Shown piece after piece: positions 22,960 through 39,998 of a DNA stretch of 64,000 nucleotides. Under the pieces are notes generated by a model that saw only the letters and a program-made list of their open reading frames with translations, did no database searches and had not been told where the DNA came from. The stretch's first letter is position 1. Every line of letters starts with the position of its first letter. The position numbers were made by a program, and so were the translations under genes. The DNA is from Yamadazyma tenuis. Its lineage: Eukaryota; Ascomycota; Pichiomycetes; Serinales; Debaryomycetaceae. The stretch lies in the NCBI RefSeq assembly GCF_029203305.1, contig NC_089467.1, positions 124,001 to 188,000 of the forward strand, written 5' to 3'.

Positions 22960-23930
22960 CCTTCCTACTTTTTGCAGCCAATCTCTATGCCATATGCGAA
23001 TATGCTGGAACTCTCAATTGCTAATGTACTTAGAAGGGCCCTTTACCCAGCCAATATCCAACATCAAATCAAATGTCGAAAGCAACCTCGATGCAAGAAA
23101 TAAAAACCAAGCAAACCAAGCAAACAGTGAAAAATCCTGGACTCAAGAAGACAATCGCTCGTACCTATTAGATGACTTTGATAAGTTGAAAGCAATGGTA
23201 ACCACCACTGGATACGACCTGTTGCCTCGGGATATCGTGGGTATTGTCAACTACCACGCTGAAAGAGTTGGATCTTACGATAGACTCGAAGGCTTTACAG
23301 TGGGCACAAGATGTGGTGAATGGTAGAAAAGTTGATTCAAACACTCCTATGATAGGATGGGCTACCATGTTCGCCAAAAGACAGGTCTGTGAATATAATA
23401 CTAGTTTTGATGGTGGGTCCTTCTTCCGCCCCATAAAAGAAGTGAAATTCATAGACCATTGGGGATTATTTTTGACGCATGTAGATGCTACAAAACAGAA
23501 AAGCAAATAATTGAATGTATTGAACCAGTTCTTGGAGAGACTCAATGCTAATAAAGAAACCAAGAGGCAGAATAAACAGTTCGATGAGATGTTACAATGT
23601 CTAAGGAGTAAGACGGATGCTGGAGAAAAGGGAGAAAATAAAAGCAAGCAAGAAACCGCTTGTACAATATTAGAACAATTGAACGAGTTCAAAAGTCAAT
23701 CAATTAGCACTCAATTTGAGGAGCTACCTGAATCCATTTTGTGTGTAGTAGATGACTATACTAAGACAGGCGGTTATGTGAATTTCAGAATAAATCTGAG
23801 AGTTATAGATTGGGCTTTTGCTGTTGCTAATGGGATCACAATCTCAGGAGACCCCAAACGTTATTGGGTTACAAGGACTTTCGTTGTAGGTACCTTGAAT
23901 TTGCGTTACAGTGAAGTTCCATGAAAACCT
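22960..23930 (+). pseudogene. Decayed copy A of an unrecognised gene
   Basis: I do not recognise the family. The copy reads coding-like in pieces: one frame to about 23326, then another from about 23244 to 23924 broken by a TAA at 23508-23510, so at least one frameshift and one stop separate the parts. The second copy, inverted at 39.06-40.00 kb, shares exact words, for example 23141-23162 with 39803-39824 and 23797-23819 with 39158-39180. At the position of the TAA the other copy has a sense codon. Two stretches within the product resemble each other (an LP..I motif, then about 25-35 residues later a WA..V.NG motif), suggesting a duplicated domain. It sits between the two PHS1-type genes. 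Confidence 0.75.
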
Positions 23931-23968
23931 TTAAAAATACAAAGATTAAAATCAATACAAGCCAGTGA

Positions 23969-24079
23969 GTGTTTAAAGAATCGGGATCCACCTTCGTACC
24001 CGAGCAAGGATTATTCAAAGAAGGTATTGTCAACGGCTCCGTATTCTTTGTAGTATACCCTGTTGTCAAGCTGAATTGA
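23969..24079 (+). other. Coding-like 36-codon open tail of unknown origin
   Basis: An open frame without Met between a TGA at about 23966 and a TGA at 24077-24079. Its product has a protein-like mix, with a FVPEQGLFKEG segment and a hydrophobic SVFFVVYPVV end. It has no counterpart next to copy B. It could be a gene relic, the last exon of something unseen, or chance. Confidence 0.2.
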
Positions 24080-24281
24080 ATAGAATTCACTCTTTAATAG
24101 TGTCTAGCACACATGTACTATTTCAGCTAAGTAGTTTTCAGCGCAAAGTAAATACACAAATAGCAGTTAGTGGTGCTCCCACCTATTACTTGTCCGTTCA
24201 TTTTTGTATTTCATAGCAGTTGAGCTGTAGAAGTAAAGAGATCCGCACCGCGAACATCAAAATATTTCGAATATCATCACC

Positions 24282-37546: not shown

Positions 37547-37671
37547 ACTTTTGTTCTCACCGCTAACCGTCTTGTGGATTTTCAACTTTGTGGATTCACG
37601 AAAATTTTTTTGGCTGGCCAAAGTGGGTGATGCACGCCGCAGAAAGGCTGCAAAAACCGCCGGTGTATATT

Positions 37672-38739
37672 CTAATCTAAAGAGGCATACTTCTTTAAGG
37701 ATTCAGGGATGGCATCATACAAGCCCTTGGACTCCAACCATGACTTGGAGAAGATCCGGTCGCTGTATTTGTGGCACGAATCGGCCAAAACCGTCACGAC
37801 ATTAGATCCTTCAGGCAATTCCTGAGCCAACCTAATGGCTGCAACTACATTCAAGGCAGAGGTTCCACCTACATAAATTCCTTCTTCATCCAACAATTGG
37901 TATAACATCACGATGCTTTCTTCATCAGGAATCTTGTATGAGTCGTCAATGATGTCTATTTCCGGCTGCAAGTTTTCAGTGATTCTACCCTGCCCAATAC
38001 CTTCAGTGAACGAGGAACCACCTCTGACGATGTCCTTACCTTTGCTTTGGATATAAGAATGAACGATAGACCCAGGAGGGTCGGCCAATACGCATTTGGT
38101 TTTGTCGTTGGAGATGGTCTTTAAATACCGGGTGATACCAGCAAATGTACCACCAGTTCCGGTGGAACAGGTGAACCCGTCCACTTTCCCGTTCAATTGA
38201 GCCCATATTTCGGGGCCGGTGGTCTCGATGTGGGCTTGGCGGTTGGCGGTGTTGTCGAACTGGTTGGTCCAAACTGCATTTTCCAAGCTGTCTGCGTGTC
38301 TTTTGGCCTGGTGGTTGTAGTTTTCGGGGTTGTCGAATGCAACTGCGGGCACAGGGTGAACTTCGGCGCCTAATAAGCGTAAGGTGTCCATTTTGGATTT
38401 GGCTTGAGTGTTTGGCATGTAAATCACACATTTGTACCCTCTAGACCTACAAACGTGAGCTAAACCTATCCCGGTATTTCCAGCAGTTCCTTCGATAACG
38501 GTACCACCTGGTTTTATGAGACCTCTTGATTCGGCGTCCTTGATGACGTATAGCGCGGCTCTATCTTTAATAGAACCTCCTGGGTTCATGAACTCGGCTT
38601 TTGCGTAGACATTTCTGTTGATTCTGGAGGAGATTTTGGGTAATTTGATGAGGGGGGTGTTGCCGATAGTTTCGGTGAACCCTTCTGTAGTCAATGGCAC
38701 AAACGGAGGCTTGACAGATAAGAATCTCTTGAGGATCAT
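37672..38739 (-). CDS. MCY1: Mitochondrial cysteine synthase-like protein Mcy1
   Basis: 355 aa from the ATG at 38739 (393 in S. cerevisiae YGR012W). It is a PLP-dependent enzyme of the cysteine synthase/CBS fold: the PLP lysine is in NPGGSIKDRAAL (about residue 48), GTAGNTG (about 70) binds the substrate, and STGTGGTFAG (about 180) holds the PLP phosphate. The first 20 or so residues (MILKRFLSVKPPF) look like a mitochondrial presequence. The frame is open a further 92 codons upstream to 39015, but that stretch is not enzyme-like, so an N-terminal extension is unlikely; an alternative start is the Met at about 38823. In yeast the family is on the mitochondrial outer membrane. Confidence 0.88.
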   Translation of the reverse strand: MILKRFLSVKPPFVPLTTEGFTETIGNTPLIKLPKISSRINRNVYAKAEFMNPGGSIKDRAALYVIKDAESRGLIKPGGTVIEGTAGNTGIGLAHVCRSRGYKCVIYMPNTQAKSKMDTLRLLGAEVHPVPAVAFDNPENYNHQAKRHADSLENAVWTNQFDNTANRQAHIETTGPEIWAQLNGKVDGFTCSTGTGGTFAGITRYLKTISNDKTKCVLADPPGSIVHSYIQSKGKDIVRGGSSFTEGIGQGRITENLQPEIDIIDDSYKIPDEESIVMLYQLLDEEGIYVGGTSALNVVAAIRLAQELPEGSNVVTVLADSCHKYSDRIFSKSWLESKGLYDAIPESLKKYASLD

Positions 38740-39059
38740 GGAGGAGTACGGTGTATGGGTCAGACTGCAAACTTGGTAACTGAGATTAAAAGTTGGACAC
38801 TGAAAATTCTTGTACCATATCATGTGAGCGCGGGCGAAGACGCTCCAATTCGTTTGACCCGACAGATTCGCGGTACTACGTCGCAGAAGATATTGGATGC
38901 CTTCTATTGAATTCACATTAACAACCGGTATATTACGAAGAGCATTGAGCCGCTGACATTTCCGCCTATGAATGCTTCTTCTTCGAGGGCAAGGTGGATC
39001 TTCTTGATTTTTCAACTTGTGTAGATTTTATTTTTGGTGGACTCAAATTGTATCTTGGA

Positions 39060-39998
39060 CCTTTATTGTAACACAGAATCCAGCGACCTTCAATCAAAGC
39101 TCATGTAACCCCAATACGTGAGGTATCTCCTTATATTATGGCCCCACCAGCAGTAGTAAAAGCCCAATCTATAACTCTCAGATAAGTCCTGAAATTGACG
39201 TTACCATCTTTGTTAGTATAGCCATCTACAACACACAAAATGGAATCAGGTAGCTCCTCGAATACAGTGGTGATTTGTTTGCTTTTAAACTCGTTCAAAA
39301 GTTCTAATATGATTCAAGCGGTTTCTTGCTTGCCTTTATTTTCTTCCTTTTCTCCAATATCCTTCTTACTCTTTAGAAACTGCAACTGCTCATCAAATCT
39401 TTTGTTCTGCCTCTTGGTTTCTTTTTAGGCTTGATTCTCTCTAAAAACTGGTTCAATACGTCCAAAGTTTTGCTTTTCTGTTTTGTAGCGTCTCTATACT
39501 CCATAAATAATGAGCAGTCACTAAACAATTAACTCCTTTACAGGGCGGAAGAATGACCCACCATGAAAATCAGTACTATATTCGTAGAACTCTCTTTTGC
39601 TGATCACGGAGACCCACCCAATTATGGGAGTCTGTGAACCAATTTTTCACCATTCCTTCAAGTACCCACTGTAAAGTCTTCAGAGCAATCGTAAGATACA
39701 TAGCTCCAACCAATAAATTGTCTAGTGCACAATATCCTGGGGCAACACATCGTATCGAGTGGTGGCTGACTTTCTTTCAACTAGTCAAATTCATCTTAGG
39801 GAACGAGCGATTGTCTTCTTGAGTTCGGTTTCTTTCAAAGCTTGCGTGGCTGGGTTCTCATGCAGCAACAATGGTACATTCGACATTTGACTAGATATTC
39901 GCTGGAGCAAAGACTCATATCATACAGTTGACGGATGAGTTCCAGTATGTTCGCATAAGGCATATTTTATTGCTGCAAAAAAGTAGCAGCGACAGAGA
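39060..39998 (-). pseudogene. Decayed copy B of the unrecognised gene, inverted relative to copy A
   Basis: The reverse strand is homologous to 22960-23930 along its whole length, with exact shared stretches (39158-39180 with 23797-23819; 39803-39824 with 23141-23162; 39246-39259 with 23718-23731). It is more degraded than copy A: every frame is broken several times and the longest open piece is under 70 codons. It does keep a sense codon where copy A has its TAA. It lies between MCY1 and a zinc-finger gene, with no neighbour in common with copy A. No terminal repeats or target-site duplication were seen, so the mode of duplication is unclear. Confidence 0.75.

What the first reader, a model, noticed from the sequence alone, without database searches (positions are those of the whole stretch)
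22960..39998. Two inverted, decayed copies of one unidentified gene, 16 kb apart
The plus strand at 22960-23930 and the minus strand at 39060-39998 are homologous along about 0.95 kb, with exact matches such as 23797-23819 to 39158-39180 (23 bp) and 23141-23162 to 39803-39824 (22 bp). Both are broken by frameshifts and stops, differently in each copy, so each decayed independently after duplication. I recognise no family. There are no terminal repeats, so it does not look like a standard transposon. An intact source copy probably exists elsewhere in the genome.
Basis: partly seen in the sequence, partly recalled or inferred. Interest (0 to 1): 0.75.

Follow-up and report, generated by a model that had tools for sequence, protein, structure and literature searches.

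The report
Dead remnants of an orphan gene family
Two broken copies of the same unknown gene lie in opposite orientation about 15 kb apart in a yeast isolated from a bark beetle, and the only two other copies found in its genome are broken too, so this looks like a small gene family, so far seen only in this yeast, that has died out.

Summary
Window 22892-24089 (+) and 38898-40053 (-) are homologous end to end (72% over 1175 aligned positions), and both are broken. The genome is Yamadazyma tenuis ATCC 10573: sizes match GCA_029203305.1 and a neighbouring protein is identical. Seven own-genome searches found four copies in all: the two here, C3 ~702.0-703.1 kb and C2 ~1695.7-1696.7 kb. All four are broken, so the expected intact source copy was not found in this gapless primary assembly. 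The former protein was about 300 aa, with a ~60-aa unit present twice and a PPxY tail. In 5.8 billion proteins, only a 150-aa gene model lying in copy D matched. Pfam, PHROGs, PDB and viral contigs gave nothing credible. C-D, A-C and A-D differ mostly at third codon positions, so the family diverged while coding; A-B differences are flat, so that duplication probably came at or after the gene's death. No terminal repeats were found. Best reading: an extinct, lineage-specific paralogue family, perhaps once a PPxY adaptor for an Rsp5-type ubiquitin ligase (inferred, weak). Low to moderate interest.

The parts
22892..24089 (+). Copy A: whole homologous unit (leader, former coding region, about 90 bp past the C-terminal motif)
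   Evidence: blastn against copy B
38898..40053 (-). Copy B: whole homologous unit
   Evidence: blastn against copy A
22965..23012 (+). Conserved leader of copy A (T-run, GCAG, TATGCC-TATGCGAA); in B at about 39990-39940. A vs C 29/43 and A vs D 31/44 identical, against 47/97 and 28/63 in the next stretch; exon start, hydrophobic N-terminus or 3' splice site, undecided
   Evidence: alignment, segment counts
23073..23075 (+). Probable former start codon of copy A (CAAATGTCGAA, also in B at 39886-39884 and in copy C; not found in D)
23165..23255 (+). Copy A, first half of repeat unit 1 (LLDDFDKLKAM...DIVGIVNYHAERV)
   Evidence: tblastn with copy C piece, 55.6% identity over 23165-23272
23265..23507 (+). 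Copy A, second half of repeat unit 1 and linker, in another frame than the preceding piece; ends at TAA 23508-23510
23511..23921 (+). Copy A, 137-codon open piece holding repeat unit 2 (ILEQLNEFK...LPESILCVVDDYT...INSRVIDWAFAVA)
23988..23999 (+). Copy A remnant of the C-terminal PPxY motif (PPSY); PPPY in copies C and D
39317..39424 (-). Copy B, open piece (KETKRQNKRFDEQLQFLKSKKDIGEKEENKGKQETA)
39134..39313 (-). Copy B, open piece with repeat unit 2; stops on both sides
39524..39646 (-). Copy B, linker piece matching copy A

Best explanation
These are two of four remnants of a small Y. tenuis paralogue family. The living gene coded for a protein of about 300 aa with a ~60-aa unit present twice and a C-terminal PPxY motif. 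Shown: four copies found, all broken; C-D, A-C and A-D diverged with codon-position constraint; A and B differ with no such pattern, and share little more than the gene, so they go back to a short-range inverted copying. Inferred: the gene lost its use, all copies decayed and the family is extinct in this strain. Inferred and weak (about 0.2): while alive it was an adaptor or substrate that bound the WW domains of an Rsp5-type ubiquitin ligase through its PPxY tail, with the repeats binding a partner.
For: A-B homology E 2e-171. Two more copies, on C3 and C2, and no others with DNA or protein queries from A, C and D (one weak match, C3:231866, dropped as lying in another gene). Lesions in every copy: C changes frame twice; D has a TAG and two TAA in frame and no ATG at the expected place. 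Third-position excess C-D 70/62/109 (p 4e-4), A-C 77/76/114 (p 0.005), A-D 70/73/103 (p 0.016); A-B flat 66/60/63 (p 0.86). NG86 dN/dS for C-D is 0.38; 0 or 1 of 1000 neutral simulations reached that in each of four settings. A-B 0.58 lies within neutral simulations (P 0.07, 0.12 and 0.28 in three settings of 400 runs). The two repeat units match each other across copies (E 1e-15 for copy C unit 1 against copy A unit 2). PPPY in C and D, PPSY in A.
Against: A-B dN/dS of 0.58 (bootstrap 0.40-0.87) is under 1, so part of that divergence may have been constrained. B-C and B-D show no significant third-position excess (p 0.24, 0.14). The A-B pattern differs from C-D (p 0.016) but only marginally from A-C (p 0.054). 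NCBI holds a 150-aa gene model (PSN45_002123) that reads the open second half of D. Copy C has only two frame changes, and I could not check the reads. The own-genome search tool scores only its best candidates, so the copy number is a lower bound. The PPxY function rests on a four-residue motif.
Confidence: 0.78

Rival explanations
1. At least one copy is still a working gene in truncated form: copy D's second half (150 aa, PSN45_002123) is translated from an internal ATG and keeps the second repeat and the PPPY tail.
For: Open 162-codon frame, annotated in the public assembly and listed on 2 contigs. C-D divergence in this half still has dN/dS 0.43.
Against: That ratio covers both lineages and may mostly predate the breakage. 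The first half, which is certainly broken in D, has an even lower ratio (0.31), so nothing marks the second half as specially kept.
Confidence: 0.1
2. Relics of a mobile or viral element whose gene was scattered by insertion.
For: Four dispersed intergenic copies with almost no similarity outside the gene. No relatives among other organisms' proteins.
Against: No terminal or target-site repeats among exact words of 9 or more in the near flanks, bar one 9-mer at D. No transposase, polymerase or viral family over cut-off in Pfam, none at E below 0.03 in PHROGs. No relative confirmed in the viral contigs (two peptide patterns, 57 matches, 0 confirmed). The nearest copies differ by 28%, so there was no recent burst.
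Confidence: 0.07
3. Remnants of a selfish killer (poison-antidote) family, which typically duplicates, is lineage-specific and dies wholesale.
For: Orphan, multi-copy, all found copies dead, PPxY tail. The link between PY motifs and wtf drivers is recalled, not looked up.
Against: No positive evidence here. Third positions carry the excess and dN/dS is below 1 between lineages, with no sign of fast protein change.
Confidence: 0.05

Closest known systems
Y. tenuis gene model PSN45_002123 (150 aa, hypothetical protein)
   Same: It is the open second half of copy D itself (same residues), 40% identical to copy C
   Different: Not an independent relative; the model covers only the second half of the former gene
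Duplicated yeast pseudogenes / dying paralogue families (general kind)
   Same: Several copies, stops and frame changes, no visible coding constraint between the closest pair
   Different: No living parent gene was found, and no relative in other yeasts was found
PPxY-bearing adaptors of Rsp5/NEDD4 ubiquitin ligases (recalled)
   Same: C-terminal PPPY/PPSY
   Different: No arrestin or other adaptor domain found in Pfam; binding untested

Membership tests
Pseudogene (decayed gene duplicate) | Homology to a coding gene | tested here: met
   Third-position excess and reading-frame conservation between C, D and A
Pseudogene (decayed gene duplicate) | Disabling lesions | tested here: met
   Stops or frame changes in 4 of 4 copies
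Pseudogene (decayed gene duplicate) | Loss of selective constraint | tested here: met
   For A and B: flat over codon positions, and 0.58 within neutral simulations; for C and D separately not testable here
DNA transposon or LTR element | Terminal inverted or direct repeats, target-site duplication | tested here: not met
   Only one chance-sized 9-mer in the near flanks of four copies
DNA transposon or LTR element | Transposase, integrase or reverse transcriptase | tested here: not met
   Pfam scans; one weak DDE_Tnp_1_7 match, E 0.073, 12.8 bits against cut-off 22.4
Endogenised virus or plasmid gene | Relative in viral or plasmid sequence | tested here: inconclusive
   0 confirmed of 57 pattern matches in IMG/VR; PHROGs best E 0.031; no match in PLSDB plasmids with the 150-aa D piece; that yeast linear plasmids and mycoviruses are thinly covered there is my assumption
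Inositol polyphosphate kinase (PF03770) | Score over Pfam cut-off | tested here: not met
   Copy A piece 16.9 bits with CTG as Leu, 14.5 with CTG as Ser, cut-off 22.2; not listed for the copy C pieces or the three read-through copies
Double-stranded RNA-binding domain (PF00035) | Profile match | tested here: not met
   Own-genome search rings at three other places only
Rsp5/NEDD4 PPxY adaptor | PPxY motif | tested here: met
   PPPY in C and D, PPSY in A, lost in B
Rsp5/NEDD4 PPxY adaptor | Binding to a WW domain | not testable with these tools
   -

The most novel reading that the evidence does not exclude
An extinct, lineage-restricted protein family with its own repeated ~60-aa domain of unknown fold, possibly a selfish or conflict gene family caught just after every copy in the genome died.
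Probability: 0.1. Interest if true: 0.5.

Novelty: new member of a known kind. Interest (0 to 1): 0.24.

Why it matters
It is a small case of a whole orphan family apparently going extinct: lineages that once diverged under coding constraint, a later duplication that shows none, and no intact copy found in a near-complete primary assembly. If intact relatives turn up in sister Yamadazyma species, the cause of death could be studied directly. If they do not, it illustrates orphan gene turnover. The biochemical role is unknown and the case is otherwise ordinary.

Tried and rejected
Pfam, PHROGs, PDB sequences (2 matches, best E 0.91, chance) and viral contigs gave nothing usable. The weak IPK match of copy A is not reproduced by the other copies. 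The weak seventh place, C3:231866 (E 0.047), lies in another gene, DAD2-like by recall, and was dropped as chance. Structure predictions were poor and disagree: copy D second half, mean pLDDT 37.8, mixed helix/strand; repeat unit 2 of copy A, pLDDT 58.6, three helices. A Foldseek search of the second found nothing (3 matches, best E 5.3). An intron ending at the leader's TTTGCAG was considered; I found no convincing 5' site or branch point by eye and left it open. Membrane segments were not tested. Fungal relatives' genomes are not held, so synteny and empty-site tests were not possible.

Papers: PMC10281105 read (part 1 of 2, main text). The other searches were seen as listings only, and two found no paper; none of the listed titles and abstract openings describes this family.

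Full report
Observation. The two regions are homologous along their whole length: 851/1175 identical (72%), E 2e-171, opposite strands. The limits are 22914-24085 and 38902-40031 under default scoring, and 22892-24089 and 38898-40053 under looser scoring. Copy A lies between two PTPLA genes (22073-22726 and 24282-24926); copy B lies between a PLP-dependent enzyme gene (37672-38823) and a C2H2 zinc-finger gene (40724-42097).

Organism. The neighbouring C2H2 protein is identical to a Yamadazyma tenuis ATCC 10573 protein over all 421 residues that the public model holds. G000 has 10,858,197 bases in 8 contigs. This equals the 10,831,699 nuclear plus 26,498 mitochondrial bases of GCA_029203305.1, and contig C3 equals its N50 of 1,446,176. 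That assembly is described as gapless, with telomere repeats at every chromosome end but one, and holds the primary contigs of a diploid.

Copies. Seven own-genome searches with members of this family reach four places: A and B on C7, copy C at C3 ~702.0-703.1 kb and copy D at C2 ~1695.7-1696.7 kb. The four protein searches each reached all four; the three DNA searches each missed one (A's DNA missed D; C's missed B; D's missed A). One further weak match (C3:231866, E 0.047) lies in another gene and was dropped. The tool scores only its best candidates, so the count is a lower bound. Identity of the main aligned stretch is A-B 71.6%, C-D 65.7%, and 57.6-60.5% between the two pairs.

Lesions. 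All four are broken. A: frame changes near 23165 and 23256-23265, stops at 23508 and 23922. B: pieces in three frames, and 4 stops within the stretch matching C's second piece. C: two frame changes, one between the ATG and the first repeat unit, one in the linker. D: one frame from the first repeat unit on, but with a TAG and two TAA, and no ATG at the expected place. A and B both lack 8-10 nt relative to C and D in repeat unit 1 (alignment). A shared frame-breaking loss is the plain reading, but a shared in-frame loss followed by one more change in each copy is equally short.

Selection. Differences by codon position are 70/62/109 for C-D (p 4e-4), 77/76/114 for A-C (p 0.005), 70/73/103 for A-D (p 0.016), 118/100/125 for B-C (p 0.24), 103/116/131 for B-D (p 0.14) and 66/60/63 for A-B (p 0.86). 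Third against first plus second position, A-B differs from C-D (p 0.016) and marginally from A-C (p 0.054). NG86 dN/dS, codons with stops left out, is 0.38 for C-D (bootstrap 0.23-0.59), 0.45 for A-C, 0.44 for A-D, 0.66 for B-C and 0.58 for A-B (0.40-0.87). Neutral simulation gives about 0.7-0.8; C-D is reached in 0 or 1 of 1000 runs in each of four settings, and A-B in 7%, 12% and 28% of 400 runs in three settings. So the family diverged as a protein-coding gene, while A and B separated mostly or wholly without constraint.

Protein. Read piece by piece, the former protein was about 300 aa. A unit of about 60 aa, ending in C-I-V-D-D-Y-T ... I-N-S-R/K-x-x-x-W-A, occurs twice and the two units match each other across copies. 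The C-terminus carries PPPY (C, D) or PPSY (A). A leader upstream of the probable ATG is better conserved than the stretch that follows it and remains unexplained.

Relatives. In the 5.8-billion-protein set, the 175-aa piece of C found none at E up to 10 (52 candidates). The three-copy profile found 1 of 3814 candidates, the 150-aa model PSN45_002123, which is copy D itself. That search sees only proteins of similar length that share short words. As a control the neighbouring C2H2 protein found 90 of 3795 candidates, among them many CTG-clade yeasts, so such yeasts are held; unannotated pseudogenes would still be missed. No credible family was found in Pfam, PHROGs or PDB, no viral contig and no plasmid. 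Structure prediction was uninformative.

Mobility. In the near flanks the only matches between copies are the end of the A-B unit itself (24045-24085) and one 16-mer between the flanks of B and C; there are no terminal or target repeats among exact words of 9 or more except one 9-mer at D. This fits single-gene duplication, and for A/B a short-range inverted one. Whether the inverted position arose by copying or by a later inversion cannot be told without relatives.

Conclusion. The finding is real but its core is ordinary: a decayed, apparently lineage-specific paralogue family with no intact member found in this assembly. The proposed role as a PPxY adaptor of a ubiquitin ligase is an inference from one short motif.

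Noticed in passing
22073-22726 and 24282-24926 (+): Two tandem PTPLA genes (3-hydroxyacyl-CoA dehydratase type by recall) flank copy A; the dead copy sits between them.
   Followed up: no
40727-42097 (-): The C2H2 gene is one open frame of 457 codons, but the public Y. tenuis model lacks 36 of them, presumably as an intron; either could be right.
   Followed up: partly
44105-44941 (+): PIR-type cell-wall protein gene with repeated DGQIQ units (Pfam PIR and PIR1-like_C), behind about 2 kb without an ATG-started ORF of 120 codons or more.
   Followed up: no
22965-23012 (+) and about 39940-39990 (-): Leader with T-run, GCAG and TATGCC-TATGCGAA, recognisable in all four copies and better conserved than the stretch after it; function unknown.
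   Followed up: partly
L021 4218-4706: Public gene model PSN45_002123 annotates only the open second half of a broken gene.
   Followed up: yes
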